Source of the DNA: Mycolicibacterium sp. HK-90
Lineage (GTDB): Bacteria; Actinomycetota; Actinomycetes; Mycobacteriales; Mycobacteriaceae
Direction: 5' to 3'
Length of the DNA stretch: 64,000 nt
NCBI RefSeq assembly: GCF_030486405.1
Contig: NZ_CP129613.1
Location: 4,650,001-4,714,000, forward strand
The notes beneath the pieces are model-generated. The model was given only the letters and a program-made list of their open reading frames with translations. It had not been told where the DNA came from and ran no database searches. Positions 12,543 through 26,713 of this stretch are shown here, in pieces (the first letter of the stretch is position 1; every line of letters begins with the position of its first letter). A program made the position numbers and the translations under genes.

Positions 12543-14465
12543 TCAGGCTGAGCCGATGGGCTGCAGGTCGTAGACGGGGACGTTGCCGACCATGGTCTTG
12601 GTGAAGTTCGCCTTCACCCAGTCGGTGATCTGCCCCGCGCTCCCGTGCGCCTCGTGCGGCGGCCCACCACGGCCGCCCTCGGGCCGGTCCAGGAAGTAGC
12701 GCACCTGGCCGTCGGCGACGTACTGCTGGAACTGCGCGAGGGTGGGCGAGTTGTCGCTGCCGGTGAATCCGCCGATCGCCATCAGCGACTCCCCGGTCCG
12801 AAGTTCCAGGTCGCTGACCATCATCGAGCCCACACTGGCGGCGGCCCATCGACCGTCGGCGCCCGCGATCAGCGCGGCCAACGCCGGATCGTCGGTCAGC
12901 CCGAAACCGCCGCCGGGCCCACCCGGTCCACCGAACCCCATGTCGCGCTTGGGTCCGGAGGTGGCGATCGGCCCGCCGGTGTGGCCGGCGGCCACGGTCT
13001 CGACGGTGTAGGCGGCGGTCGCGGCGAGGCCGCAGATCACCGCGGCCGTGGCCACCACGGCGGACAGCCTGCCCGGCCGGTGAGCGACGACGGCCAGGGC
13101 CACTGCGGTCAGGACCGCCCCGATCACCACCACCCAACGCAGCGCGGGCAGCCAGTCCGGCGTCCGGTCGAGCAGCACGAACGCCCACACTCCGGTGCCG
13201 GCCAGCATGGCCGCCAGCACCAGCCGGGCCGCCGGTCGCGCACGGACCCGCCACAAGTCGGCGACTGACATGCCCACCAGCGCGGCCACCGCGGGGGCCA
13301 GCGCCACGGTGTAGTACGGGTGGATGATCCCGTCCATGAAGCTGAACACCACGGCGGTGACCAGCATCCAGCCGCCCCACATCAGCAGGCCGGCCCGGGG
13401 CGCGCCGGTTCGCGGACTACGCCGGGTCAGCCACAGGGCGGCCAGCAGACCGATCAGCGCGGCCGGCAGCAACCACGACGCCTCGGTCCCCATCGACATT
13501 CCGAACATGCGGCCGATGCCCGGGTCGCCGCCGAACATCAGGTTGGCCCCGCGCCCGGGTCCACCGCCCGGGCCGCCCGGGCCGGGGCTGAAGCCTGGCC
13601 CGGACTGCTCACGACCCAGGATGCGTTGCAGGCCGTTGTACCCGAAGGCCAGCTGCAGCAGGCTGTTGTCGGTCGAGCCGGCGATGTACGGCCGCGACTC
13701 CGTGGGCCACAACGCCACCAGCGCGAGGTACCAGCCCGACGAGATCACCATCGTCGCCGCACCGATCAGCAAGGTGCCCAACCGCTTCCACACCCCTACT
13801 GCCGGTGCGGCAACGAGAAACATCAGCGCCAGGCCGGGAACGATCAGGAACGCCTGCAGCATCTTGGTCAGGAACGCGAAACCCAGCACGCACCCCGCCA
13901 ACGCCACCCAGCCGGCACTGGCCCTGGCCGACACCGGCCCGACCGCGCGCACCATGAAATAGGCGGCCAGCACCAGCAGCAGGACCAGCAGCGCGTCTGG
14001 ATTGTTGTAGCGGAACATCGCGGCGGCCACCGGGGTCAAGGCCAGCGCCGCTCCGGCGATCAGGGCGGCGGCCGGGCCGCTGGTGCGCCGCACCGTGGCG
14101 TAGAGCAGTGCCACCGCACCCACACCCATCAGGGCCTGCGGCAGCAGCATGGTGAACTCGTCGAAGCCGAACAGTCGGCCCGACAATCCCATTGCCCACA
14201 GCGCCGCCGGCGGCTTGTCCACCGTGATCGCGTTTCCGGCGTCCAGGGATCCGAACAGCCAGGCTTTCCAGGATTGGGTGCCGGCCTGGGCCGCGGCCGC
14301 GTAGTAGCTGTTGGCCCAGCCGGAGGATCCGAGGCCCCACAGATACAGCACGGCGGTGGCGGCCAGCAGCGCCCAGTACGAGGGCCGAACCCAGCGCGGT
14401 GCCGGCGTAATCGGTGCCGCGGGTTCTGCCGCCGCATCGGGTGCGGTGTCGACGATCGTCGTCAT
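12543..14465 (-). CDS. GT39/ArnT-like membrane glycosyltransferase, paralogue A
   Basis: 640 aa. An N-terminal cytoplasmic tail is followed by about 12-13 membrane helices. The first periplasmic loop has GSLDAGNAITVDKPPAAL with the acidic residue expected to be catalytic in the GT-C/PMT fold. Two Gly/Pro-rich stretches stand out: one near the middle (PGFSPGPGGPGGGPGRG) and one before the C-terminal soluble domain (GFGGPGGPGGGFG). GT39 enzymes move sugars from polyprenyl-phosphate carriers. The ATG at 14465 overlaps the GT2/GtrA stop (ATGA). The soluble C-terminal domain shares the IAxWVxAxxxxxxVxNVxxYDL pattern with the paralogue at 15804-17651. Confidence 0.9.
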   Translation of the reverse strand: MTTIVDTAPDAAAEPAAPITPAPRWVRPSYWALLAATAVLYLWGLGSSGWANSYYAAAAQAGTQSWKAWLFGSLDAGNAITVDKPPAALWAMGLSGRLFGFDEFTMLLPQALMGVGAVALLYATVRRTSGPAAALIAGAALALTPVAAAMFRYNNPDALLVLLLVLAAYFMVRAVGPVSARASAGWVALAGCVLGFAFLTKMLQAFLIVPGLALMFLVAAPAVGVWKRLGTLLIGAATMVISSGWYLALVALWPTESRPYIAGSTDNSLLQLAFGYNGLQRILGREQSGPGFSPGPGGPGGGPGRGANLMFGGDPGIGRMFGMSMGTEASWLLPAALIGLLAALWLTRRSPRTGAPRAGLLMWGGWMLVTAVVFSFMDGIIHPYYTVALAPAVAALVGMSVADLWRVRARPAARLVLAAMLAGTGVWAFVLLDRTPDWLPALRWVVVIGAVLTAVALAVVAHRPGRLSAVVATAAVICGLAATAAYTVETVAAGHTGGPIATSGPKRDMGFGGPGGPGGGFGLTDDPALAALIAGADGRWAAASVGSMMVSDLELRTGESLMAIGGFTGSDNSPTLAQFQQYVADGQVRYFLDRPEGGRGGPPHEAHGSAGQITDWVKANFTKTMVGNVPVYDLQPIGSA

Positions 14466-15748
14466 TTCCCTGTCCCTCGATTCGGCCCGGCGGTGCGCCG
14501 TGTGCGCGACGGGTGGAACACCCATCCCCGCAACAGAACGAAGCGCACGACGGTGGCCAGCAAGTTGGCCACCACCAGTACTGCGAGTTCGACGCCGCGA
14601 TGGGGTACCGGCGTCATGGCGTGCAAGATCCCGAGCGATCCGCTGGTGATGGTCAGTGCGATCGCGAACACGGTCAACCCCTCGGCGTGATGCCGGGTGA
14701 GGCTGCCGGCACCCGCGATGCCGAACGTGAACCGCCGGTTGGCGGCGGTGTTCCCGATCGCGGTCACCAGCAGGGCCACCAGATTGGCCGCCTGGGCCCC
14801 GACCCCGGACCGCAACGCCATGAACAGCAGCAGGTAGGCGAGCGTCGAGACCACACCGACGGCGGCGAATCGGACTGCCTGGCGCAGCAGGGAGCCCGGC
14901 GCCGCCGATTTCCGCGAGGACCCGAGCTGGGCGGCGATGGTGTTCACCGGGATCGACCCATCGGCGAAGCCGCGCAGCAGCCGGCCGATGCCCTTGAGAT
15001 CCGCCTTGGCGGTGGCGACGATGTCCACCCGGCTGTCCGGATCGTCCACCCAGTCCACGGGCACCTCGTGAATCCGCAGGCCACTGCGCTCGGCCAGCAC
15101 CAACAGCTCGGTGTCGAAGAACCACCCGGTGTCGGCCACATGGGGCAACAGGCGGCGGGCCACGTCGGCGCGGATCGCCTTGAACCCACACTGGGCATCT
15201 GAGAACCTCGCTGCCAGAGTCGATTTCAGGATCAGGTTGTAGCAGCGCGAGATGAACTCGCGCTTGGCGCCGCGGACCACCCGTGAGCCGCGGCCGAGCC
15301 GGGTGCCGATGGCCAGGTCGGAGTGACCGGAGATCAGCGGCGCCACCAGCGGCGCGAGGGCAGCCAGGTCGGTGGACAGGTCGACATCCATGTAGGCCAG
15401 CACCGGGGCATCGGAGGCCGACCACACCGCATGCAGCGCCCGACCACGTCCCTTCTGCTCCAGTCGGACCACCCGGACCCCGTCGAGCTCGGCGGCCAGT
15501 TCGGCGGCGATCTTCGGGGTCTCGTCCACGCTGGCGTTGTCGGCGATGGTGATGCGGACCGGCACCGCGAAGTTCTCGTCCAGGTAGCGATGCAGCCGCC
15601 GTACCGAATGTGCAAGTGTGGCTTGCTCGTTGTGCACCGGGACGACGATGTCGAGTACCGGAACACCGGCTGCCCGGGCGGCCAGCGCGGCATTGGGCCG
15701 GGACGCGAAGTGGAACCGCTGCTCGGGGACGTGGACCGTGGCTGTCAT
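14462..15748 (-). CDS. Bifunctional GT2 polyprenyl-phosphate glycosyltransferase / GtrA membrane protein
   Basis: 428 aa from the chosen ATG. Residues 30-260 are a dolichol-phosphate-mannose-synthase-like GT2 domain: DIVVPVHNEQ, IADNASVDET, the metal-binding DVD at 121-123 and a QCGFKAIR segment. After about residue 285 comes a four-helix GtrA domain (RFAAVGVVSTLAYLLLF, ending FVLLRGWVF). Together they would make a polyprenyl-phosphate sugar and help present it outside, supplying donor for the two flanking GT39 enzymes. A tandem direct-repeat regulator site lies 44 bp upstream of the start. Confidence 0.92.
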   Translation of the reverse strand: MTATVHVPEQRFHFASRPNAALAARAAGVPVLDIVVPVHNEQATLAHSVRRLHRYLDENFAVPVRITIADNASVDETPKIAAELAAELDGVRVVRLEQKGRGRALHAVWSASDAPVLAYMDVDLSTDLAALAPLVAPLISGHSDLAIGTRLGRGSRVVRGAKREFISRCYNLILKSTLAARFSDAQCGFKAIRADVARRLLPHVADTGWFFDTELLVLAERSGLRIHEVPVDWVDDPDSRVDIVATAKADLKGIGRLLRGFADGSIPVNTIAAQLGSSRKSAAPGSLLRQAVRFAAVGVVSTLAYLLLFMALRSGVGAQAANLVALLVTAIGNTAANRRFTFGIAGAGSLTRHHAEGLTVFAIALTITSGSLGILHAMTPVPHRGVELAVLVVANLLATVVRFVLLRGWVFHPSRTRRTAGPNRGTGK

Positions 15749-15791
15749 GACTTCATCGTTCTTCGGCGAATTGTGTTCTCGGTTGGGCGAA

Positions 15792-15809
15792 GCTATGCGC
15801 CGGCTATGT
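15792..15809 (-). promoter_or_regulatory. PhoP-like direct repeat upstream of GT2/GtrA
   Basis: GCTATGC-GCCG-GCTATGT: two 7-mers with a 4-base spacer (11-bp period), overlapping the stop codon of the upstream GT39 gene. It has the layout of the mycobacterial PhoP site (TCACAGC-N4-TCACAGC read on the other strand) and matches sites at 20080-20108 and 21067-21095. It probably marks an internal promoter. Confidence 0.6.
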
Positions 15810-17651
15810 GTTCGTCGCATGCTGTGTCAGGTCGTAGATCGTGACGTTGTCGACGGTGATCGGGTTGTAGTGCGCCTGCACCCATTCCGCGATCTCGATC
15901 GCGGCCCGGCTGCCACTCGGGGTATGCCCGCCGAAACCGCCTGCCATGATCCGGGACCGGATGAAGTAGTGGATGGCACCGTCGCCGACGAGACCCTGGA
16001 ACTCATCAAGTGTCGGTGCGGGGTCGGTGCCGTTGAAACCGCCGACAGCCATCACCGGTGCACGGGTGGCCAGTTGGTATCCCGCGGCGTTCGACGATCC
16101 CACCACCGCCGCCGCCCACCGGTAGCGCCCCGCGTCGGCGGCCAGCATCGCGGTCAGCGCCGGCCCGGGCTCCGGAGCCGCGAAGAGTCCGCCGCCGAAG
16201 CCGTGGCTGCGCGGCGGCCCCACCGACGGGATCGCGCCAGTGTGCGGGTTCGCCGCGGTGGCGATCGTGTATGCGGCCGGTCCGGCCAGGCAGGCGACGG
16301 CGGCCAGCGCGGCCGTCACCCGCGTCATCGGGCGGCTCGGCTTTCGGAACATCAGCAGCGTGGCGGCCCCCGCTCCGCAGACTGCCACCGCCGCCTGCAA
16401 CCATCCGAAAGTCCCGCCGTGCCGAGACAGCAGCACCATCGCCAGGATCGCGGTCACCAGCACCGCACCCGACATCGCCGTCGCGGCAAGGACATCGGCT
16501 CGGTGTTGCCACAGCAGCGTGGCGCCGATGCCGATCACCGCGCCGACCGCGGGAGCGAGCGCCACGGTGTAGTACGCGTGGACGATGCCGTTCATGAAGC
16601 TGAACACCACCGCGGTGACCACCAGCCAACCGCCCCACATGATGAGGGCGGCCCGGGCCGGGTCGGTGCGGGCCGCCCGGCGCCGCGCGTATAGCCCGGC
16701 GACCAGACAGATCAGGGCGGCGGGCAGCAGCCAGGCGATATCGGCGGCCATGTGTGAACCGAACAACCGGCCGGGCCCGACATCGAAGTTGAGGTTGCCG
16801 AGTCCGCCGGTTTCCTCACCGGTCAGCCGGCCCAAACCGTTGTACCCCAGGGCCAATTCGACGATGCTGTCGTGCTGCGAGCCACCGATGTACGGGCGCG
16901 CCGAGGCCGGCCACAGCTCGACCAGCAGCAGATACCAACCCCCGCTGGCCACCAGGGCCGCACCGGCCACGACCACATCGAGGACGCGCCGGCCCAGCGG
17001 GCGGTCCCCGGCGACCAGCATGGTCGTGGCGAGCGCCGGCACCACGAGGAACGCCTGCAGCATCTTGGCCAGGAAGCCGAACCCGACCGCGACGCCCGCG
17101 GCCACGAACCACCAACGGCCGGCGTCTTTTTCGATCCCGCGCTGCACGCAATAGGCCGCCACCACGAGCAGAAGCACGAGCAACGCGTCAGGGTTGTTGA
17201 ACCGGAAGATCAACGCCGCCACCGGCGTCAGGGCCAGCACGGCCCCGGCCGACAACCCGGCCCACGGTCCGGCAGCCCGGCGCACCGCGGCGTAGAGCAC
17301 GGCGACGGCCCCGACCCCCATCAACGCCTGCGGCACCAGGATGCTCCACGGATTCACGCCGAACAGGCGGACCGAGGTGTCGATGATCCACAGCGCGGCC
17401 GGTGTCTTGTCCACCGTGATCGCATTGCCCGCGTCACTGGACCCGAACAGCATGGCGGTCCAGTTCTGCGCTCCGGCCTGCGCTGCGGCCGAATAGAACG
17501 CATTCGCCCACCCGCTGCTCGAAAGGTTCCACAGGTAGAGCACCGCCGTGCCGGCCAGCAGCACCGCCAACAGGATGCGATGACCGGACTTCGTGCCCTC
17601 AGGAGAGACCGCCTCCGCCTCGGCAGCGGGTTCTGCGGCAACCAGAGTCAC
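15804..17651 (-). CDS. GT39/ArnT-like membrane glycosyltransferase, paralogue B
   Basis: 615 aa, GTG start. Membrane topology and loop sequences follow paralogue A closely (SSGWANAFYSAAAQAG, DAGNAITVDKTPAALW, QALMGVGAVAVLYA, FNNPDALLVLLLV), so the pair arose by duplication. It lacks the long central Gly/Pro-rich insert of paralogue A. Predicted to transfer a sugar from polyprenyl phosphate to an exported acceptor. It starts 22 bp after the histidine kinase, in operon with it. Whether A and B use different acceptors is unknown. Confidence 0.9.
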   Translation of the reverse strand: MTLVAAEPAAEAEAVSPEGTKSGHRILLAVLLAGTAVLYLWNLSSSGWANAFYSAAAQAGAQNWTAMLFGSSDAGNAITVDKTPAALWIIDTSVRLFGVNPWSILVPQALMGVGAVAVLYAAVRRAAGPWAGLSAGAVLALTPVAALIFRFNNPDALLVLLLVVAAYCVQRGIEKDAGRWWFVAAGVAVGFGFLAKMLQAFLVVPALATTMLVAGDRPLGRRVLDVVVAGAALVASGGWYLLLVELWPASARPYIGGSQHDSIVELALGYNGLGRLTGEETGGLGNLNFDVGPGRLFGSHMAADIAWLLPAALICLVAGLYARRRAARTDPARAALIMWGGWLVVTAVVFSFMNGIVHAYYTVALAPAVGAVIGIGATLLWQHRADVLAATAMSGAVLVTAILAMVLLSRHGGTFGWLQAAVAVCGAGAATLLMFRKPSRPMTRVTAALAAVACLAGPAAYTIATAANPHTGAIPSVGPPRSHGFGGGLFAAPEPGPALTAMLAADAGRYRWAAAVVGSSNAAGYQLATRAPVMAVGGFNGTDPAPTLDEFQGLVGDGAIHYFIRSRIMAGGFGGHTPSGSRAAIEIAEWVQAHYNPITVDNVTIYDLTQHATNT

Positions 17652-17673
17652 GGCTCCATCGTGGCCGTGACCG

Positions 17674-19317
17674 CTAGGTGCCCGATTGGTCCGAACTGTG
17701 CGTGTGCTGTGACTCGGGCAGGCGCACCACGAATTCCGTCGCCCCCGGCACGCTGCTCACCTCGATGGTGCCGCCGTGCGCCCTGACCACGGCAGCCACG
17801 ATCGCCAGGCCGAGCCCGGTGCTGCCCTCCCGTCGCGACCGCGACGAATCTCCTCGGGCGAACCGTTCGAACACGTCCGGCAGCAGGGTCGGCGAGATCC
17901 CGGGACCGTCGTCCGCAACGGTGAGCACCACCGCGTCCTCGCCGGCCTTCAGCGATATCGTCACCGACGTCCCGGCCGGCGTATGGGTGCGGGCGTTGGC
18001 CAGCAGATTCGCCAGCACCTGGTGCAGTCTGGCCTCATCACCCTGGACCGTCACCGGATCGTCGGGCAGGTCCAGCGACCACTGGTGATCCGGCCCGGCG
18101 ACATGGGCATCGCTGACGGAGTCGACCACCAGCCGGGACAGGTCGACGGCGGCGCGCTCCAATGGCCGGCCGGCGTCGAGTCGGGCCAGCAGCAGCATGT
18201 CCTCGACCAGTTGGGTCATCCGGGTCGTCTCGGATTCCACGCGGTTCATCGCGTGGGCCACGTCCGTGGGCAGGTCGTCGCGCTTGCGCTGGGCCAGCTC
18301 GGTGTAGCCCCGGATCGCCGCGAGCGGGGTCCGCAACTCGTGGCTGGCGTCGGCGACGAACTGGCGCACCCGGGTCTCACTGGCGTGGCGCGCCGAGAGC
18401 GCGCCGGCGATGCGATCGAGCATCCGGTTCAGCGAGGTGCCGAGCTGCCCCACCTCGGTATGGGCGCCGGCCGGGTCGACCGGCACGATCTGGGTGGGCA
18501 GCTGCACCTCGCCACGGTCGAGTTCGAGATCGGCCACCTGCCGCGCGGCCACCGAAACCCTTGACAGCGGGGCGAGTTGGCGCCGGATGATCAGGATTCC
18601 GCCCGTTGTCGCCGCGATCAGCGCGATCACCGCGAGCAGGAAGAACATTCCTAGCACCCACAGCAGGGTGTCGTCGACGACCGCGGTCGGCAGTCCCGTC
18701 ACGATGGTCTGCGGGCCGCCGTGGCGCGGGTGCAGGCCGATGACCCGGTACCGACCCAGACCGTCGAGGTCAACGGTCTCGGGAGACCGGGTCGCCGGAA
18801 TCTGCGAAAGCTGTTCAGCCGCAGCCGCACTGACCTCGACCCGCTCCCCCTCGGTGGTGATCAGCCCGGCGTCGACGGGCCGACCCGGTGAGATGACCGC
18901 ACCGACCGTGCGTGCCGCCTGGCCGGGAGCGTTGAGGAACCCCGGCCCCGAGCCCTGTTCGGGGTCGACCACCACCCGGTATCGAGGTCCCGGATGGGGC
19001 GCGTCTGGCGCACCCATCTCGGAGCCGATGATCACCGGCGGCGGAAAACGGTGCGGCGGCGGAAAACCCATCGGCGGGGGTGGCAGTTCGAAGATCGCCG
19101 CCGAGCGCCGGCCGGCCTCGATCAACTGGTCGTCCAGCTGGTTCATCAGAAACCGCTGCAGCGCAAACTCTGTCGCTATTCCGATGCTGGCGCACACCAC
19201 GGCCAACAGGGCCACCTGGGTGACGACCAGGCGGGCGCGCAACGACCAGCTCCGCGGTGACCACCACCGAAACCCGACCGGTCCGGCCGGTGCCTCAGCG
19301 CGCGGGTCGGAGGACAT
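17674..19317 (-). CDS. Sensor histidine kinase, HAMP/HisKA/HATPase (OmpR-type partner)
   Basis: 547 aa from ATG 19317; a GTG three codons earlier (19326) is also possible. Transmembrane helix 1 is near residue 30 and helix 2 near 220-245, enclosing a periplasmic domain of about 170 aa with a Pro-rich stretch (PPPPMGFPPPHRFPPP). HAMP follows, then phospho-acceptor His in ADASHELRTP, NLLANARTH, DDGPGI and GSTGLGLAIV boxes. Its start lies inside the response regulator gene (23-bp overlap). The Pro-rich sensor loop is a distinguishing feature; the signal is unknown. Confidence 0.94.
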   Translation of the reverse strand: MSSDPRAEAPAGPVGFRWWSPRSWSLRARLVVTQVALLAVVCASIGIATEFALQRFLMNQLDDQLIEAGRRSAAIFELPPPPMGFPPPHRFPPPVIIGSEMGAPDAPHPGPRYRVVVDPEQGSGPGFLNAPGQAARTVGAVISPGRPVDAGLITTEGERVEVSAAAAEQLSQIPATRSPETVDLDGLGRYRVIGLHPRHGGPQTIVTGLPTAVVDDTLLWVLGMFFLLAVIALIAATTGGILIIRRQLAPLSRVSVAARQVADLELDRGEVQLPTQIVPVDPAGAHTEVGQLGTSLNRMLDRIAGALSARHASETRVRQFVADASHELRTPLAAIRGYTELAQRKRDDLPTDVAHAMNRVESETTRMTQLVEDMLLLARLDAGRPLERAAVDLSRLVVDSVSDAHVAGPDHQWSLDLPDDPVTVQGDEARLHQVLANLLANARTHTPAGTSVTISLKAGEDAVVLTVADDGPGISPTLLPDVFERFARGDSSRSRREGSTGLGLAIVAAVVRAHGGTIEVSSVPGATEFVVRLPESQHTHSSDQSGT

Positions 19318-20047
19318 AACCCGCACCGCGCAGCGTGTGGATCATCGGATCGCGGCCGCTGTCGATCTTCTTTCGCAGATACGACACATACAGCTCGACG
19401 ATGTTGGACCGGCCGCCGAAGTCGTAACTCCACACCCGATCGAGGATCTGCGCCTTGCTCAGCACTCGTTTGGCGTTGCGCATCATGAACCGCAGCAGTT
19501 CGAATTCGGTGGCGGTCAACGAGATCGGGTCGCCGCCCCGAGTCACCTCATGACTGTCCTCGTCGAGCACCAGGTCCCCGACGACGATCTTGGCGCCGCC
19601 GTCCTCGGTGGTGACGCCGGTGCGACGCAGCAGCGCGCGCAACCGGAGCACCACTTCCTCCAGGCTGAACGGCTTGGTGACGTAGTCGTCACCACCGGCG
19701 GTCAGCCCGGCGATGCGGTCCTCGACCGAATCCTTGGCGGTGAGAAGCAGCAGCGGCAGACCGGGGATCTGCTGCCGCAGCTTGCGCAGCACGTCCAGGC
19801 CGCTCATGTCGGGCAGCATCACGTCGAGCACGACGACATCCGGCGGGTTCTCCCGGGCCGTGGCGATGGCACTCGCACCATCGCCGGCCGTCGCGATGTC
19901 CCAGCCCTCATATCGCAACGCCATCGACACCAGCTCGGCCAGCACGGGCTCGTCGTCGACCACCAGCACGCGGATCGGGTTTCCGTCGGCGCGGCGCATC
20001 ACCGCGCGCCCGGACTCGGACTCGGCACTGTCGGTCGTCGAGCTCAT
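19295..20047 (-). CDS. OmpR/PhoP-like response regulator
   Basis: 250 aa. The receiver has Asp31-Asp32, phospho-acceptor Asp75 in LDVMLPD and Lys in DDYVTKPFSLEEVV. The C-terminal winged helix carries YDFGGRSNIVELYVSYLRKKID, very close to the recognition region of mycobacterial PhoP, and RGAGYVLRP at the end. It is first in a five-gene run (regulator, kinase, GT39-B, GT2/GtrA, GT39-A). A triple 11-bp-period direct repeat sits 33 bp upstream of the start, suggesting autoregulation. Probably a PhoP paralogue rather than PhoP itself, judging by the neighbours. Confidence 0.95.
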   Translation of the reverse strand: MSSTTDSAESESGRAVMRRADGNPIRVLVVDDEPVLAELVSMALRYEGWDIATAGDGASAIATARENPPDVVVLDVMLPDMSGLDVLRKLRQQIPGLPLLLLTAKDSVEDRIAGLTAGGDDYVTKPFSLEEVVLRLRALLRRTGVTTEDGGAKIVVGDLVLDEDSHEVTRGGDPISLTATEFELLRFMMRNAKRVLSKAQILDRVWSYDFGGRSNIVELYVSYLRKKIDSGRDPMIHTLRGAGYVLRPAR

Positions 20048-20079
20048 CCGCTCATTATTCGCCCGCCGAATAGGCTCCG

Positions 20080-20108
20080 ACTGTGCGCTTCCTATGCGCC
20101 GGCTGTGA
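20080..20108 (-). promoter_or_regulatory. Triple PhoP-like direct repeat before the response regulator
   Basis: ACTGTGC (20080), CCTATGC (20091) and GCTGTGA (20102) are spaced exactly 11 bp. The last repeat is identical to the mycobacterial PhoP half-site (GCTGTGA, reverse TCACAGC). It lies between the regulator start and the stop of the first small membrane protein, in position to control the regulator operon. Confidence 0.65.
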
Positions 20109-20154
20109 ACACCAACCTCACAGGCAACATCTGCACCGTGGGATGGTCAATTCG

Positions 20155-20397
20155 TCAGCCGTTGCCATACCCGTCGGGCAGTTCCACCTTCACCGGCGGG
20201 GTCGCCACCGAGGTTTCCAATTCGCTGGGAGCTGTTGATTTGGTGATGGTTTCGCCGGCGGTGGCGGCCGGCACCGGGCCGGTCTCCGCGCCGCTGATGG
20301 GCACCATCGCGCCGACTGCACCCATCGCTGCCAGTGCGATCGCTCCCACACCGGCCATCACGTACTTGGTCCGCTTGTTGCGTTCGTCTCCTGTCAC
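20155..20397 (-). CDS. Small single-span membrane/exported protein, tandem paralogue 1
   Basis: 80 aa, GTG start with GGGAGG five bases upstream. The layout is a basic N-terminus (DERNKRTKY), one hydrophobic helix (VMAGVGAIALAAMGAVGAMV), then a Thr/Pro/Ser-rich tail with AGETITKSTAPSELETSVATP. The tail aligns with the two neighbouring small genes. I do not recognise a named family. Last of three tandem copies and directly upstream of the response regulator in the same orientation. Thr/Pro-rich exported tails are typical O-mannosylation acceptors, and GT39 enzymes lie next door; this link is inference. Confidence 0.75.
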   Translation of the reverse strand: MTGDERNKRTKYVMAGVGAIALAAMGAVGAMVPISGAETGPVPAATAGETITKSTAPSELETSVATPPVKVELPDGYGNG

Positions 20398-20471
20398 ACC
20401 GACCTCCCTACCCGCACCGCAGCGGCGGGTAAACCCACCGCTGCGCCTATCGGGTGACAGGTTCGTTGCGA

Positions 20472-20732
20472 TCAGTGCGGAGTAGCAAACCCCGACGGCG
20501 TGGTCGCCGAGACCGACGGCGTGGCCACCGAGGTTTCCGGTTCCGTCGGCGCGGTCGTCGGGGTGATGGTCTGTCCAGTGGTGACGGCCGGCGGCTCGAC
20601 CCGCTGGGGGGCACCGGTGATGCCACCGGCCACGCCGACGCCGAGCACCGCCGTGGCTAACCCGCCGATGGCGCCGACGCCGGCTGATATCAATTTCAGA
20701 TTTCGCCGATTGTTTTCCTTCGCGCTACTCAA
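20472..20732 (-). CDS. Small single-span membrane/exported protein, tandem paralogue 2
   Basis: 86 aa from a TTG at 20732, chosen because GGGAGG lies eight bases upstream; a GTG at 20741 is too close to that site. The layout is a basic N-terminus (KENNRRNLK), a Gly/Ala hydrophobic helix, then VTTGQTITPTTAPTEPETSV followed by ATPSVSATTPSGFATPH. The motif T-x-GQT-x-T-x-TTAP-x-x-PE and the C-terminal P-SGFAT-H are shared with paralogue 3. Degenerate 11-bp-spaced repeats (GCTCTGG-N4-CCGATGC) lie at 20749-20766. Confidence 0.72.
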   Translation of the reverse strand: MSSAKENNRRNLKLISAGVGAIGGLATAVLGVGVAGGITGAPQRVEPPAVTTGQTITPTTAPTEPETSVATPSVSATTPSGFATPH

Positions 20733-20796
20733 TGAGCTCACCTCCCGAGCTCTGGGTAACCGATGCGGCCGTAGGTGAAACCGCACCGGCAGGCGA

Positions 20797-21045
20797 TCAA
20801 TGGGTGGTGGCGAAACCCGACGGCGGCGTGTTGCCCCTCAGCGCAGGCACCGCCATCGAGACCTCCGGCGCGGACGGTGGCGTGGTCTCGGTGCTGGTCT
20901 GGCCCACGTTCATGTGGGAAGTCGAGGCCATGGCCTCGGCACCTGAGCCCATCGCGACGGCCCCGAACACTCCCAAGCCCACGATTGCCGCGCCCCCGGC
21001 GCCAGCAGCGAGCAGTTTCACCTTCTTGAGTTCGCCGACCAACAT
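20797..21045 (-). CDS. Small single-span membrane/exported protein, tandem paralogue 3
   Basis: 82 aa, ATG start. A short basic N-terminus (ELKKVK), an Ala/Gly-rich helix (LLAAGAGGAAIVGLGVFGAV), then a tail with MNVGQTSTETTPPSAPEVSM and a C-terminal TPPSGFATTH, matching paralogue 2. First of the three in transcription order. A triple 11-bp direct repeat begins 22 bp upstream of its start. Function unknown; a one-span protein with an exported Thr/Pro tail is all that can be said. Confidence 0.75.
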   Translation of the reverse strand: MLVGELKKVKLLAAGAGGAAIVGLGVFGAVAMGSGAEAMASTSHMNVGQTSTETTPPSAPEVSMAVPALRGNTPPSGFATTH

Positions 21046-21066
21046 GTTTCCAGTGAACGCCCGGTT

Positions 21067-21095
21067 GCTATGCCCAGGCTGTGAACCGGCTGCCA
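21067..21095 (-). promoter_or_regulatory. Triple PhoP-like direct repeat before the small-protein cluster
   Basis: GCTATGC (21067), GCTGTGA (21078) and GCTGCCA (21089) are at an 11-bp period, the middle one identical to the PhoP half-site. It lies 22 bp upstream of small paralogue 3 and about 85 bp upstream of the candidate oppB transcription start, so it could act on either side. Confidence 0.62.
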
Positions 21096-21172: not shown

Positions 21173-21179
21173 GTGTCCC

Positions 21180-21209
21180 ATGCAGCCGTGGGCAGGGACG
21201 ACCGGATGA
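21180..21209 (+). CDS. Candidate leaderless 9-codon upstream frame of oppB
   Basis: ATG at 21180 reads MQPWAGTTG and ends in a TGA that overlaps the oppB ATG by four bases (ATGA). The ATG is seven bases after a TACCCT hexamer. The layout matches the 14-codon frame in front of cysD. It could load ribosomes on a leaderless transcript and pass them to oppB. Inferred from position only. Confidence 0.38.
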   Translation: MQPWAGTTG

Positions 21210-22183
21210 CGCGCTTCCTGGCGCGCCGGCTGCTCAACTACACCGTGTTGCTGGCTCTGGCGTCCTTCCTGACGTTCACGCTGACGTCGCTGACGTTCGA
21301 GCCGCTCGACAGCCTGCTGCAGCGCAACCCGCGGCCACCGCAGTCCGCGATCGATGCCAAAGCCGCCGAACTCGGTCTCGACAAGCCCATTCCGCTCCGG
21401 TATGTCGACTGGGCGTCCGGCGCGGTCCGCGGCGACTTCGGAACGACGGTCACCGGGCAACCGGTGTCCGATGAACTGTGGCGCCGCATCGGAGTCAGTC
21501 TGCGGCTGCTCGTCATCGGCTCGGTCGTGGGCACCGTGATCGGTGTGGTGTTCGGCGCCTGGGGCGCCATCCGGCAGTATCGGCTCTCCGACCGGTTCAT
21601 CACTCTGCTGTCGTTGCTCGTGCTGAGCGCGCCGACGTTCGTGATCGCCAACATGCTGATCCTGGCTGCGCTCAACGTGAACTCGCTACTGGGCGTGCAG
21701 TTGTTCGAGTACACCGGGGAGAGCTCGCCCGACGCCATCGGCGGGTCGTGGAACCAGTTCGTGGACCGCATACAGCATCTGGTGCTGCCCACCTTCACCC
21801 TGGCCCTCGGCGCCATCGCCGGCTACAGCCGCTACCAGCGCAACGCCATGCTCGATGTGCTCGGTCAGGACTTCATCCGCACGGCGCGGGCCAAGGGGCT
21901 CACCCGCGGCCAGGCGTTGTTCAAGCACGGCCTGCGCACCGCACTCATCCCGATGGCGACGCTGTTCGCCTACGGCGTGGCAGGGCTGGTGACGGGCGCG
22001 GTGTTCGTCGAGAAGATCTTCGGCTGGCACGGCATGGGTGAATGGGTGGTGCAGGGCATCGCCACCCAGGACACCAACATCATCGCCGCCATCACGGTGT
22101 TCACCGGCGCGGTGGTGCTCTTGGCAGGGTTGTTGTCGGACGTCATATATGCGGCGCTGGATCCCCGGGTGCGGGTGCGATGA
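21206..22183 (+). CDS. oppB: Peptide ABC transporter permease (OppB)
   Basis: 325 aa, about six membrane helices. The ATG at 21206 (MTRFLARRLLNYTVLL) has AGGGACG upstream and is preferred to the longer frame from 21173. The N-terminal FxxRRLL start and the cytoplasmic EAA loop (YQRNAMLDVLGQDFIRTARAKGLTRGQALFKHGLR) are diagnostic of OppB/DppB permeases. First gene of oppB-oppC-oppD-oppA. In M. tuberculosis the Rv1283c-Rv1280c importer has been linked to uptake of peptides, including glutathione. Confidence 0.95.
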   Translation: MTRFLARRLLNYTVLLALASFLTFTLTSLTFEPLDSLLQRNPRPPQSAIDAKAAELGLDKPIPLRYVDWASGAVRGDFGTTVTGQPVSDELWRRIGVSLRLLVIGSVVGTVIGVVFGAWGAIRQYRLSDRFITLLSLLVLSAPTFVIANMLILAALNVNSLLGVQLFEYTGESSPDAIGGSWNQFVDRIQHLVLPTFTLALGAIAGYSRYQRNAMLDVLGQDFIRTARAKGLTRGQALFKHGLRTALIPMATLFAYGVAGLVTGAVFVEKIFGWHGMGEWVVQGIATQDTNIIAAITVFTGAVVLLAGLLSDVIYAALDPRVRVR

Positions 22184-22211
22184 GCGCTTGCGCGAAGAGC
22201 CGAGGAATGCG

Positions 22212-23138
22212 ATGACCCAGACTTCCGATGCCACGTCTGCCCGGTCCGGGCTGCACACCGAGGAATTCGCGACGCGGCGCACCCTGGTGTTCCGCCGGTT
22301 CCTGCGCAACAAACCCGCGGTGGTGTCGCTGGGACTGCTCGTCGTGCTGTTCGTCGGCTGCTACGCCCTGCCGCCGCTGTTGCCCTACAGCTACACCGAC
22401 CTCGACTACTACGCGCTGCAACAGCCGCCGTCACTCGACCACTGGTTCGGCACGAACGCCCTGGGCCAGGACATCTTCGCCCAAACCCTGCGCGGCATGC
22501 AGAAATCCATGCTGATCGGGGTCTGCGTCGCGTTCATCTCGACCATCATCGCTGCCACCGTCGGAGCGATCGCCGGCTACTTCGGCGGCTGGCGCGACAC
22601 CGCACTGATGTGGATCGTCGACCTGCTACTGGTGGTGCCCAGTTTCATCCTCATCGCCATCGTCACGCCCCGCCTCGGCCAGTCCGACCGGGTGTTCTGG
22701 CTGATCCTCTTGTTCTCGATGTTCGGCTGGATGATCAGCTCGCGCATCGTCCGCGGCTTGACGCTGAGCCTGCGCGAACGCGAGTTCGTCGTCGCCGCAC
22801 GATATATGGGCGTGAGCAACTGGCGGATCATCGCCCGCCACATCCTGCCCAACGTGGCATCGCTGCTGATCATCGACACCGCGCTCAACGTCGGTCTGGC
22901 GATTCTGGGCGAAACCGGTTTGAGCTTCCTGGGTTTCGGCATCCAGGCGCCCGACGTGTCGCTGGGCACCCTGATCGCCGACGGCACCCGCTCCGCCACC
23001 ACGTTCCCCTGGGTGTTCCTGTTCCCGGCCGGGGTGCTGGTGCTGATCGTGCTGTGCGCCAACCTGACCGGTGACGGGTTGCGGGATGCGTTCGACCCCG
23101 GCAGCCGTCAGCTGCGTCGACGGAGGTCGCGAAAGTGA
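22212..23138 (+). CDS. oppC: Peptide ABC transporter permease (OppC)
   Basis: 308 aa. The start MTQTSD is preceded by GAGGAATG-type spacing; the open frame extends further upstream only inside oppB. It has the OppC features: [17 protein letters not shown] first helix, [19 protein letters not shown], and the EAA loop [26 protein letters not shown]. Partner of OppB in the membrane channel. The end overlaps the ATPase gene by four bases (GTGA). Confidence 0.95.
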
Positions 23139-24979
23139 GCCGGCTCCTCGAAGTGTCCGACCTGCGGGTGGACTTTCCCACCGACACCGATGCCGTACAT
23201 GCGGTGCGGGGAGTGAACTTTCACGTCGACTCCGGTGAGGTGGTCGCGCTCGTCGGTGAATCCGGCGCCGGGAAGTCGGCCAGCGCCATGGCCGTCGTCG
23301 GGCTGCTGCCCGAATTCGCCGAGGTGTCCGGATCGGTGCGCCTGCGCGGCGAGGAACTCGTCGGCCTGGCCGATCCGGAGATGTCGCGCATTCGGGGCAA
23401 CGTCATCGGCACGGTGTTCCAGGACCCGATGTCCGCACTCACCCCCGTCTACACCGTCGGCGACCAGATCGCCGAGGCGCTCACCGTCCACAACCGGGAA
23501 CTCGGCCGGCGCGCGGCCCGGGCCCGCGCGATCGAACTACTCGAGCTGGTCGGTATCGCCCAGCCGGAACGACGGGCGCGCGCTTTCCCGCACGAACTGT
23601 CCGGCGGCGAACGCCAGCGCGTGGTGATCGCCATCGCCATCGCCAACGACCCCGACCTGCTGATCTGTGACGAGCCCACCACCGCCCTCGACGTCACGGT
23701 GCAGGCCCAGATCCTCGACGTCCTCAAGACCGCCCGCGACGTCACCGGCGCCGGAGTCCTGATCATCACCCACGATCTCGGTGTGGTGGCCGAGTTCGCC
23801 GACCGCGCGCTGGTGATGTACGCCGGACGGGCCGTCGAGGACGCCCCGGTGGCCCGGCTGTACGACGGGGCCCGGATGCCGTACACCGTCGGCCTGCTCG
23901 GCTCCGTACCGCGGCTGGACGCCCCGCAGGGCACCCGGCTCGTACCGATCCCCGGTGCTCCCCCGTCGCTCACCACCGAGCCGCACAGTTGTCCGTTCGC
24001 CCCGCGCTGCCCACTGGCCATCGACGAATGTGAAGCCGCCGAGCCCGAACTCGTCGAGTTGGCGCCCGACCACCATGCTGCGTGCATCCGCACCGAGGAG
24101 GTGGCCGGCCGCAGCGCCGCCGAGATCTATCAGGTGCCGGGCACCGCTCCGATCGCATCCGAAACCGGATCCGAGGACACCCCACTGGTGCTGCGGGTGC
24201 GCGACCTGTCCAAGACCTACAAACTGACCAAAGGCGTGGTGCTGCGCAGGCAGATCGGCGAGGTGCGCGCCGTCGACAAGGTCAGCTTCGACCTGCATGG
24301 CGGTCGCACCCTCGGGATCGTCGGCGAGTCCGGATCCGGCAAATCCACCACCCTGCACCAGATCCTCGATCTGACTGCACCACAATCGGGTTCGATCGAG
24401 GTACTCGGCTCCGATGTGGCATCCCTGGACCGGAGGACCCGCCAGGCCCTGCGCACCGACCTGCAGGTGGTGTTCCAGGATCCCGTCGCCTCACTGGATC
24501 CGCGACTACCCGTGTCCGACGTGCTGGCGGAGCCGTTGACCGCCAACGGTTTCGACAAGCCACGGATCGATGAACGGGTGGCCGGGCTACTGGAATTGGT
24601 GGGCCTGCGGCGCGCCGACGCCAGCCGCTACCCGGCGGAGTTCTCCGGCGGCCAGAAGCAGCGCATCGGCATCGCCCGGGCACTGGCCCTGCAGCCCAAG
24701 ATCATCGCCCTGGACGAACCGGTGTCCGCGCTCGACGTGTCCATCCAGGCCGGGATCATCAACCTACTGCTCGACCTGCAGGACCGGTTCGGCCTGGCCT
24801 ACCTGTTCGTGTCGCACGACCTGTCGGTGGTCAAGCATCTCGCCCACGACGTCGCGGTCATGTACAAGGGCGCGGTGGTCGAACAGGGCTCCGGAGAGTC
24901 GGTGTTCGCCGACCCGCAGCACGCCTACACCCGCAAGTTGCTGGCCGCGGTGCCGCAACCACGGCCCGCCACTGATTAG
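23135..24979 (+). CDS. oppD: Peptide ABC transporter ATPase, fused OppD-OppF
   Basis: 614 aa with two complete nucleotide-binding domains in one chain. First NBD: Walker [11 protein letters not shown] at 41-50, [13 protein letters not shown] signature and CDEPTTALD Walker B. Between them is the Opp-type C-terminal zinc-like motif ([14 protein letters not shown]). Second NBD: Walker [11 protein letters not shown] near 397, [15 protein letters not shown] and LDEPVSALD. The fusion replaces the separate OppD and OppF of many bacteria, as in mycobacterial Rv1281c. GTG start overlaps the oppC stop. Confidence 0.96.
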
Positions 24980-25021
24980 GTATTGCCGCGTCCGCGGGTT
25001 GCTGCATCTAGCATCGACTGG

Positions 25022-26713
25022 GTGAACGGGTTCAAGGGGTTCAAACTCCAGCGCTTCGCCATCGTCGCAGCAATCACCACACTCGCCCTGGCCGGGTGTA
25101 CCGGAGGCGACCGGGAAACCCCGTCGGCCGGCGGCAACGCCGAGGTCGGCACCACCAACGACGTCAACCCACAAGACGTGGCGAACCTGCGCCAAGGCGG
25201 CAACCTGCGGCTGGCCCTGACCGAGTTCCCGTCGAACTTCAACCCGCTGCACATCGACGGCAACACCGGCGACGTCGGCTCGCTGACCAAGCCCACCCTG
25301 CCCCGCGCGTTCGTCATCGCCGCCGACGGCTCCGCCACGGTGAACACCGACTTCTTCACCAACGTCGAACTGACCGGGACCAACCCTCAGGTGGTGACGT
25401 ACACGATCAATCCCAAGGCGGTGTGGTCCGACGGCGTCCCGATCACCTGGGAGGACATCAAGTCGCAGACCGAGGCCAACAGCGGGAAGAATCCGGACTT
25501 CATCATCGCCGCCCCCAACGGCTTCGAGCGGGTGGCCTCGGTGACCCGCGGGGTCGACGACCGGCAGGCCGTGATGACCTTCGCCAAACCGTACGCGGAC
25601 TGGAAGGGCATGTTCGCCGGCAACGGACGGCTGCTGCCCAAGAGCATGACCGCGACCCCCGAGGCCTTCAACAAGGCCCAGCTCGGTGGGCCCGGACCAT
25701 CGGCCGGCCCGTTCATCGTGTCCAACATCGACCGCGGCGCACAGCGGATCACGTTGAGCCGCAACCCGAAATGGTGGGGTGCCCCTCCCCTGCTCGACAC
25801 CATCACCTTCCTGGTGCTCGATGACGCGGCCCGCATCCCGGCGCTGCAGAACAACACCATCGACGCCACCGGAACCGCGTCACTGGACGAGCTGACCATC
25901 GCCCGCAAGACCCCGGGCATCACGATCCGGCGGGCCCCCTCGGCCAGCTGGTACCACTTGACCTTCAACGGTGCGCCCGGCTCGATCCTGGCCGATCCGG
26001 GCCTGCGGCGCGCGGTCGCCAAGGGCATCGACCGGCAGGCGCTGGCCAACATCACGCAGCGCGGTCTCACCGACAATCCGGTGCCGCTGAACAACCACAT
26101 CTTCGTGGCGGGTCAGCAGGGCTATCAGGACAACGCCGCTTCCGTGGCCTTCGACCCCGAGAAAGCCAAGGCCGAACTCGACGCACTGGGCTGGAAAGTG
26201 CCGGAGGGACGGCAGTTCCGGGAGAAGGACGGCAAAGAACTGGTGATCCGCAACGTGTTCTACGACGCGGGCAGCACCCGCCAGGTGGCCCAGATCGCGC
26301 AGAACATGCTGGGCCAGATCGGGGTGAACCTCCAGCTCGACACGAAGCCCGGCACCGGCTTCTTCACCAACTACATCATCAAGGGCGACTTCGACATCGC
26401 CCAGTTCGCCTTCCTCGGCGACGCGTTCCCGCTGAGCTCGCTGACCCAGATCTATGCGCAGGAGGGAGCGAGCAACTTCGGCAAGATCGGCAGCCCGGAG
26501 ATCGACGCCAAGATCGAACAGACGCTGGAGGAGCTGGATCCGGAAAAGGCGCGCGCGCTGGCCAACGAACTCGATCAGATGTTGTTCGAGGAGGTGTTCA
26601 GCCTCCCGCTGTTCCAGTCACCGGGCAACGTCGCGGTGCGCAGCAATCTGGCCAATTTCGGGGCCTTCGGCCTGGCCGACGCGGATTACACCAAGATCGG
26701 ATTCGTCAAGTAG
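25022..26713 (+). CDS. oppA: Peptide-binding lipoprotein of the ABC importer (OppA)
   Basis: 563 aa, SBP_bac_5 family. The GTG at 25022 gives a signal peptide ending in the lipobox LALAGC, so the mature protein is a lipid-anchored receptor. Family features include GGNLRLALTEFPSNFNPLH, the KAVWSDGVPITWEDIK segment and a C-terminal domain with LASDxL-like LANELDQMLFEEVFSLPLF. Last gene of the importer operon, 42 bp after oppD. The ligand is probably oligopeptide; glutathione is possible by analogy with Rv1280c. Confidence 0.94.
   Translation: MNGFKGFKLQRFAIVAAITTLALAGCTGGDRETPSAGGNAEVGTTNDVNPQDVANLRQGGNLRLALTEFPSNFNPLHIDGNTGDVGSLTKPTLPRAFVIAADGSATVNTDFFTNVELTGTNPQVVTYTINPKAVWSDGVPITWEDIKSQTEANSGKNPDFIIAAPNGFERVASVTRGVDDRQAVMTFAKPYADWKGMFAGNGRLLPKSMTATPEAFNKAQLGGPGPSAGPFIVSNIDRGAQRITLSRNPKWWGAPPLLDTITFLVLDDAARIPALQNNTIDATGTASLDELTIARKTPGITIRRAPSASWYHLTFNGAPGSILADPGLRRAVAKGIDRQALANITQRGLTDNPVPLNNHIFVAGQQGYQDNAASVAFDPEKAKAELDALGWKVPEGRQFREKDGKELVIRNVFYDAGSTRQVAQIAQNMLGQIGVNLQLDTKPGTGFFTNYIIKGDFDIAQFAFLGDAFPLSSLTQIYAQEGASNFGKIGSPEIDAKIEQTLEELDPEKARALANELDQMLFEEVFSLPLFQSPGNVAVRSNLANFGAFGLADADYTKIGFVK

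What the first reader, a model, noticed from the sequence alone, without database searches (positions are those of the whole stretch)
15792..21095. An 11-bp-period direct repeat ties small membrane paralogues, a PhoP-like two-component system and lipid-linked glycosyltransferases into one candidate regulon
Seen: three sites with 7-mers at exact 11-bp spacing (15792, 20080, 21067), two of them triple, using GCTATGC/CCTATGC/GCTGTGA. GCTGTGA is the reverse of the known mycobacterial PhoP half-site TCACAGC, which is also spaced by four bases. Weaker versions lie at 20749-20766 and 20440-20457. The adjacent regulator has a PhoP-like recognition helix. Inference: it binds these sites and controls the small proteins, itself and the GT cluster as a surface-modification regulon.
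Basis: partly seen in the sequence, partly recalled or inferred. Interest (0 to 1): 0.75.

Follow-up and report, generated by a model that had tools for sequence, protein, structure and literature searches.

The report
TcrX operator array and its regulon
A short DNA word repeated every 11 letters in front of several mycobacterial genes looks like the docking site of the acid-sensing regulator TcrX, for which no common site had been found, and it points to surface-sugar enzymes and small membrane proteins as its targets.

Summary
On the gene strand it is a tandem array of PhoP-like half-sites, TCACAGC-N4-RCATAGR-N4-GCAYAGN plus a weak fourth unit, ending near a -10-like box. It precedes the regulator in 79 of 79 usable relatives, and also the adjacent glycosyltransferases (GT2 37 of 38, first GT39 21 of 31, second GT39 1 of 38) and the first small-protein gene. 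By neighbourhood the regulator is the orthologue of TcrX, the acid-sensing regulator of M. tuberculosis. A 2024 paper shows TcrX binding its own and the Rv3706c (tarA) promoter but reports no shared motif. tarA homologues carry this array in 45 of 50 genomes with tcrX and 1 of 12 without. The published 'mirror repeat' is probably one half-site plus the -10 box. The repeat architecture is a known kind; the TcrX operator and the glycosylation link appear new.

The parts
20069..20110 (-). Array at the regulator promoter: TCACAGC-N4-GCATAGG-N4-GCACAGT-N4-GCCTATT, followed by GAATAAT; first half-site base 61 bp before the ATG
   Evidence: (40.7 bits, but this site is one of the model's 56 training sites)
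21062..21085 (-). Array (two half-sites) 39 bp before the ATG of small protein 1
   Evidence: (16.9 bits)
17673..17712 (-).
   Evidence: 6.8 bits, E 0.78, weak alone; 21 of 31 placed relatives
15786..15810 (-). Array before the GT2-GtrA gene; ACATAGC-N4-GCATAGC take the second and third slots of the model
   Evidence: 11.4 bits; 37 of 38 placed relatives
19295..20047 (-). Response regulator, OmpR/PhoB type, inferred orthologue of TcrX
17674..19326 (-). Sensor histidine kinase (HAMP, HisKA, HATPase_c), inferred TcrY orthologue
15804..17651 (-). GT39-type membrane glycosyltransferase (PMT_2, YkcB_C)
14462..15748 (-). GT2 glycosyltransferase fused to a GtrA/DPMS membrane domain
12543..14465 (-). 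Second GT39-type glycosyltransferase; no array of its own
20797..21045 (-). Small membrane protein 1 (82 aa, Thr/Pro-rich tail)
20472..20738 (-). Small membrane protein 2 (start uncertain), no supported array
20155..20397 (-). Small membrane protein 3 (80 aa), no supported array

Best explanation
The repeat is the operator of TcrX. Phosphorylated TcrX would bind head to tail on three to four 7-bp half-sites, one per 11 bp, as PhoP does on TCACAGC-N4-TCACAGC, with its downstream subunits over the -35 region, and activate the promoter. Array positions and geometry are shown by sequence; binding and activation are inferred. In this organism TcrX would turn on its own operon, small membrane protein 1, the first GT39 and the GT2-GtrA gene, and, elsewhere in the genome, the tarA homologue. 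The GT2-GtrA plus GT39 proteins have the parts of a lipid-linked transmembrane glycosylation system, so the likely output under acid stress is a change of an envelope glycan or glycoprotein plus small membrane proteins (inferred).
For: Distances between CAYAG words there: 135 at 11 bp, 67 at 22, 1 at 13, 1 at 24; far flanks (804,632 bp, both strands counted) gave 1 pair at 11 bp. A -10-like box begins 48-49 bp after the first half-site in 73 of 79. Model R1, trained on 56 regulator promoters, gave 32 other hits in 1.19 Mb: 28 within 81 bp and 1 at 249 bp upstream of the extrapolated start of GT2 or GT39, 3 on the opposite strand just upstream of the regulator. Exact pairs within 170 bp upstream: GT2 37 of 38, first GT39 21 of 31, second GT39 1 of 38. 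Rv3706c homologues found by a protein tail: array at the same place in 11 of 11, R1 E below 0.05 in 7; 45 of 50 genomes with tcrX against 1 of 12 without (Fisher P 9e-8). TcrX binds its own and the Rv3706c and Rv3705A promoters in vitro (PMC10883919). The recognition helix keeps N, E, Y, Y of PhoP's contact residues.
Against: No binding or expression data here. Relatives are not independent; 7 of the 12 tcrX-less genomes look like one clade, and their tarA-like genes are distant homologues (E 4e-13 to 8e-7). TcrX identity rests on neighbourhood, since M. tuberculosis was not recognised among the sampled genomes. Tandem second tarA copies lack the array in 8 of 8 seen; if Rv3705A is such a copy, its published binding is not explained. 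Ten of 50 genomes gave no R1 hit at E 0.2; of six of these inspected, five keep at most one half-site before the regulator and one keeps a single pair. The published regulon has 70 genes, far more than the arrays found here. 12 of the 19 exact pairs in this genome and 7 of 20 R1 hits outside regulator promoters elsewhere are unassigned.
Confidence: 0.82

Rival explanations
1. The array is read by PhoP, which has nearly the same half-site and the same 4-bp spacer, and TcrX is only a bystander or shares the sites.
For: PhoP recognises TCACAGC-N4-TCACAGC (PMC4832192). The genome has a PhoP orthologue with its own pair TCACAGG-AACT-GCACAGC upstream.
Against: Of 12 genomes with a tarA-like gene but no intact tcrX, 9 have a PhoP-type regulator (55-57% identity) and 0 of these 9 keep the array before tarA; 7 of them read TCACAGG (one GCACAGG) -AACT-TCACGGG instead, which scores 4.2-5.9 on the second-pair matrix. 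The second half-site is CATAG (81% T) where PhoP's is CACAG. Restoring PhoPR in H37Ra did not change tcrX expression (PMC8424205, passages). TcrX and PhoP helices differ at a base-contacting residue, L in 78 of 78 readable TcrX loci (2 unreadable), S in 11 of 11 PhoP-type loci.
Confidence: 0.09
2. Another paralogue of the same subgroup (the 62%-identical regulator at 1146123 of this genome) reads the array.
For: It is the closest paralogue in the genome.
Against: The array sits at the promoter of the TcrX-type regulator itself in 79 of 79 usable loci, the usual autoregulatory arrangement, and at homologues of a promoter that TcrX is published to bind. The paralogue's own promoter was not examined. 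G324 has a 60% paralogue and a tarA-like gene without the array.
Confidence: 0.05
3. The repeats are chance or a by-product of local composition.
For: CAYAG is a common 5-mer (91 in the window, both strands).
Against: Strict 11/22-bp spacing, position just before gene starts, and conservation in Nocardia and Skermania as well as Mycobacterium.
Confidence: 0.01

Closest known systems
TcrXY of Mycobacterium tuberculosis (Rv3765c/Rv3764c), PMC10883919
   Same: Regulator and kinase of the same type; in 23 of 79 loci an LpqH-like gene lies 2.6-2.9 kb downstream on the opposite strand, as expected from the numbering Rv3763-Rv3765c; homologues of the published direct targets tcrX and Rv3706c have the array.
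   Different: The paper assigns a 7-bp mirror repeat at tcrX and reports no motif at Rv3706c or Rv3705A. In the window the kinase is followed by glycosyltransferases, not lpqH; the paper's main text has no word beginning 'mannosyl' or 'glycosyl'.
PhoP box of M. tuberculosis, PMC4832192
   Same: 7-bp direct repeats with 4-bp spacer, able to extend to three or four motifs; contact residues N, E, Y, Y shared.
   Different: Second half-site is mostly CATAG, not CACAG; helix has L in place of S216; the genome's PhoP is a separate protein.
Multi-component transmembrane glycosylation systems, B. subtilis YkcC/YkcB type, PMC8035078
   Same: GT-A type glycosyltransferase, GtrA-type domain and PMT_2/YkcB_C-type GT-C enzyme.
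   Different: GtrA is fused to the GT2; two GT39 enzymes; sugar and acceptor unknown here. No teichoic acids in mycobacteria (recalled).
B. subtilis YrkPQ regulon, as cited in PMC10128005
   Same: A two-component system whose regulon includes YkcB and YkcC (passage).
   Different: Common descent and gene arrangement not tested here.

Membership tests
OmpR/PhoB-family response regulator | Receiver plus Trans_reg_C winged-helix domain | tested here: met
   PF00072 and PF00486 over cut-off
TcrX (Rv3765c) orthologue | Neighbourhood regulator-kinase-lpqH in relatives | tested here: met
   PF05481 in L076; LpqH-like ORF in 25 of 79 loci, 23 of them 2.6-2.9 kb downstream, all on the opposite strand. 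Rv3763 = LpqH from a search listing. The window itself has no lpqH next to the kinase
TcrX (Rv3765c) orthologue | Reciprocal best match to the M. tuberculosis protein | not testable with these tools
   No M. tuberculosis genome recognised among those sampled
TcrX (Rv3765c) orthologue | Controls its own promoter and Rv3706c | tested here: inconclusive
   Shared array at both; binding itself not tested here, published for M. tuberculosis
PhoP orthologue | Closest relative in the genome of M. tuberculosis PhoP | tested here: not met
   PhoP is another protein, 5517931-5518608, E 1e-137 to PDB PhoP against 3.5e-80 for the window protein
PhoP-type operator (7-bp direct repeat, 4-bp spacer) | Strict 11-bp period | tested here: met
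PhoP-type operator (7-bp direct repeat, 4-bp spacer) | TCACAGC in both half-sites | tested here: not met
   Second half-site RCATAGR
Multi-component transmembrane glycosylation system | GT-A synthase, GtrA-type domain, GT-C transferase | tested here: met
   PF00535, PF04138, PF13231 and PF24878
Multi-component transmembrane glycosylation system | Polyprenyl-phosphate sugar made and moved to an extracellular acceptor | not testable with these tools
   needs biochemistry
Rv3706c/TarA family | Sequence similarity of the window's small proteins | tested here: not met
   profile comparison of A1 and A3, probability 0.5%

The most novel reading that the evidence does not exclude
TcrXY is an acid-triggered envelope glycosylation switch: the co-regulated GT2-GtrA and GT39 enzymes add sugars to the Thr/Pro-rich tails of the co-regulated small membrane proteins (the small-protein family here, TarA elsewhere), so substrate and enzymes share one operator. 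Rv3706c and Rv3705A tail peptides are reported with hexoses in M. tuberculosis (PMC7287972 table), but which enzyme adds them in any species with this cluster is not tested.
Probability: 0.13. Interest if true: 0.8.

Novelty: new variant of a known kind. Interest (0 to 1): 0.62.

Why it matters
TcrXY was reported in 2024 as an acid-sensing system needed for persistence, with direct binding at two small-protein promoters but no recognisable motif. A 42-bp array that stands before the regulator and before tarA across the genus makes that open question directly testable, gives a likely reason for the earlier 'mirror repeat', and adds a lipid-linked glycosylation cluster and a VTC-domain gene as candidate targets.

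Tried and rejected
Small-protein family in general as target: 2 of 24 upstream regions exceed control 99% (window SP1 and L022); among nearer relatives of SP1 7 of 13 with at least 70 bp upstream exceed the 95% level (17 of 30 homologues had too little upstream DNA). SP family as TarA homologue: rejected. Absence of further sites in the genome: not claimed, because the first look scored 150 of 2082 candidates and missed the tarA site found. Rv3705A promoter: no homologue was identified by name; tandem second tarA copies were scored and lack the array (8 of 8). Seven of 20 R1 hits outside regulator promoters in 50 other genomes remain unassigned and may be chance. In one search the GT2 and GT39b queries were out of frame by my mistake; those columns are not used, and searches used the right frames. 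Controls overlapped the targets and are not used as a test. NCBIfam gave no model over its cut-off for the regulator among the 25 shown. HexRK (PMC10128005) was considered as a parallel and kept only for its sentence on YrkPQ.
Full report
What is there. The window is part of a single-contig 6.49-Mb genome; the relatives of its regulator found in named genomes are mostly Mycobacterium and Mycolicibacterium. On the minus strand it carries small membrane protein genes, a response regulator, a histidine kinase, a GT39-type glycosyltransferase (PMT_2, YkcB_C), a GT2 fused to a GtrA domain, and a second GT39. On the gene strand the repeats read as 7-bp half-sites one per 11 bp: TCACAGC-N4-GCATAGC before small protein 1, TCACAGC-N4-GCATAGG-N4-GCACAGT-N4-GCCTATT before the regulator, TCACAGC-N4-GCACAGT before the first GT39, ACATAGC-N4-GCATAGC before GT2. 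The exact core CAYAG-N6-CAYAG occurs 19 times in the genome, 5 of them here. The others include one before the tarA homologue (6021374-6021389; gene 6020943-6021332) and one before phoP (5518689-5518704); 12 are unassigned, some inside likely genes.

The regulator promoter. In 79 of 79 with upstream DNA the array stands before the regulator: 58 match all 16 defined positions, 16 match 15, 4 match 14, 1 matches 13; of 2931 control windows 11 reach 14 and none more. The set includes three Nocardia and one Skermania. Distances between CAYAG words there are 11 bp (135), 22 bp (67), 13 bp (1) and 24 bp (1); 804,632 bp of distant flank, both strands counted, gives a single pair at 11 bp. Four units can be seen in the column frequencies, the fourth weak; a -10-like box starts 48 or 49 bp after the first half-site in 73 of 79. 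In the window the first half-site begins 61 bp before the ATG, and the same 61 bp separate the first GT39 array from its assumed GTG, which would suit leaderless transcripts (inference).

Other promoters of the cluster. A sequence model (R1) built from 56 regulator promoters, the window's included, aligned without gaps, ranks the four window sites first in the 64 kb at 40.7, 16.9, 11.4 and 6.8 bits, the next being 4.8; the fourth alone (E 0.78) would not be significant. Over the 80 loci (1.19 Mb) it gives 111 hits: 79 at regulator promoters, which largely trained it, and 32 others. Of these 28 are within 81 bp upstream of the extrapolated start of GT2 or the first GT39, 1 is 249 bp upstream of GT2, and 3 are on the opposite strand just upstream of the regulator, two of them before an ORF of about 160 aa. 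Counting exact pairs within 170 bp upstream of placed genes, named by their better match to the window's first or second GT39: GT2 37 of 38, first GT39 21 of 31, second GT39 1 of 38. So the gene that can be read through from GT2 is the one without an array.

Which regulator. In 23 of 79 loci the regulator and kinase are followed, 2.6-2.9 kb from the regulator start, by an LpqH-like gene on the opposite strand (25 of 79 if two further away are counted; PF05481 in L076), as expected for tcrX Rv3765c, tcrY Rv3764c (PMC10883919, passages) and LpqH Rv3763 (search listing). M. tuberculosis itself was not recognised in the genomes sampled, so a direct comparison is missing. The genome has a separate PhoP.

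Link to proven TcrX targets. Stupar et al. 2024 (PMC10883919; abstract, section 6 and passages read) show TcrX binding in vitro to its own promoter and to those of Rv3706c and Rv3705A, name a 7-bp mirror repeat as putative site at tcrX, and state that the other two promoters lack it and that a genome-wide screen gave no obvious consensus. I searched for Rv3706c homologues by protein only, with a tail peptide printed in PMC7287972: 11 of 296 genomes. An array stands upstream of the gene in 11 of 11; R1 hits that place in each, 7 with E below 0.05, the others at 0.44 to 2.2. With a profile (A3) 50 of 51 genomes, chosen because they have tcrX, have a family member. Among the 30 best loci 29 exceed the control 99% level with the full matrix and 27 with the first pair (1459 control windows); among the other 46 matches 19 exceed the same pair level in a somewhat wider window. 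Per genome, 45 of 50 have at least one such gene with the array; one of the 45 (G345) rests on a distant site before a second copy. Tandem second copies lack it in 8 of 8. Of 17 genomes with no regulator match at 1e-90, 12 have a tarA-like gene; 1 of these 12 has the array, and it is the one that keeps a partial tcrX. Nine of the 12 have a PhoP-type regulator, and 0 of these 9 has the array. Fisher P for 45 of 50 against 1 of 12 is 9e-8, without correction for shared descent; seven of the 12 look like one clade, with distant homologues. In that clade the site reads TCACAGG (once GCACAGG) -AACT-TCACGGG, closer to this genome's phoP promoter, TCACAGG-AACT-GCACAGC.

The mirror repeat explained. 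In the 25 lpqH-linked loci a half-site and the -10 box often mirror each other (CATAGG and GGATAC; GTCATAG and GATACTG): 15 of 25 have a mirror of 6 bp or more and 4 of 25 a 7-bp one, against 7% and 2% with the downstream part shuffled. The paper notes that its BS2 overlaps the putative -10. I infer that BS1 is one unit of the array and BS2 is the promoter's own -10 box.

Mechanism. PhoP contacts TCACAGC through N212, V213, E215, S216, Y217 and Y220, binds as a tandem dimer, requires the 4-bp spacer, and extends to three and four repeats with higher affinity (PMC4832192, passages). The window helix reads N, I, E, L, Y, Y at these places; L is present in 78 of 78 readable loci (2 unreadable) and S in 11 of 11 PhoP-type loci. 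I therefore propose tandem TcrX on three to four units with the third over the -35 region. Restored PhoPR in H37Ra left tcrX expression unchanged (PMC8424205, passages), which speaks against PhoP at that promoter.

Other targets. A VTC-domain gene (PF09359) is present in 6 of 51 genomes; a pair stands upstream in 5 of the 6 by inspection (its controls overlapped the targets), two of them found by the model first. In 50 genomes R1 gave 58 hits at E 0.2; the 36 best and 2 others are taken as regulator promoters, not each checked by place. Of the other 20, 10 lie in the tcrX cluster (5 of these assigned by distance alone), 1 at tarA, 2 at VTC, 7 unassigned. Ten of the 50 genomes had no hit at E 0.2; of six of these inspected, five keep at most one half-site before the regulator and one (G277) a single pair, although tarA keeps a pair in all ten, so autoregulation seems easier to lose than tarA control.

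Function of the output. GT-A, GtrA and GT-C parts together match multi-component transmembrane glycosylation systems; YkcBC of B. subtilis has no known product (PMC8035078, passages), and a two-component system with YkcB and YkcC in its regulon is known there (PMC10128005, passage). What sugar is moved onto what in mycobacteria is unknown. Searches for a TcrX motif in print; no title or abstract start listed there gives this array, and PMC10883919 says that none was found. Subscription papers, including the 2011 paper on the mirror repeat, were not available.

Noticed in passing
L161 1923-2133 (genome G386): A regulator of this family diverges from a small proline-rich protein gene, and each side has its own array; this genome has no tarA match.
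   Followed up: partly
L158, L160, L289-L293: A VTC-domain (polyphosphate-polymerase type, recalled) gene stands behind a half-site pair in 5 of the 6 genomes of 51 that have it.
   Followed up: partly
L206-L209, L211-L213: In seven genomes without tcrX the tarA-like promoter carries TCACAGG (once GCACAGG) -AACT-TCACGGG, resembling the phoP promoter: possible takeover by PhoP.
   Followed up: no
L136, L138-L141: Genomes whose tcrX promoter has lost the array (at most one half-site left) but keeps the -10-like box, while tarA keeps a pair.
   Followed up: partly
L043, L046, L047, L049 upstream of the regulator, minus strand: A divergent ORF of about 150-185 aa with a TWG-R-type N-terminus, no Pfam match for the one tested (L046); in L046 and L049 directly behind an array.
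   Followed up: partly
genome position 1146123-1146821 (L232, L295): A 62%-identical paralogue of the regulator, followed by a kinase gene, near a sulfate permease-carbonic anhydrase fusion gene.
   Followed up: no
window 21173-26713 (+): Divergent peptide-type ABC transporter genes; the first start lies about 90 bp from the small protein 1 array, so shared control is possible.
   Followed up: no
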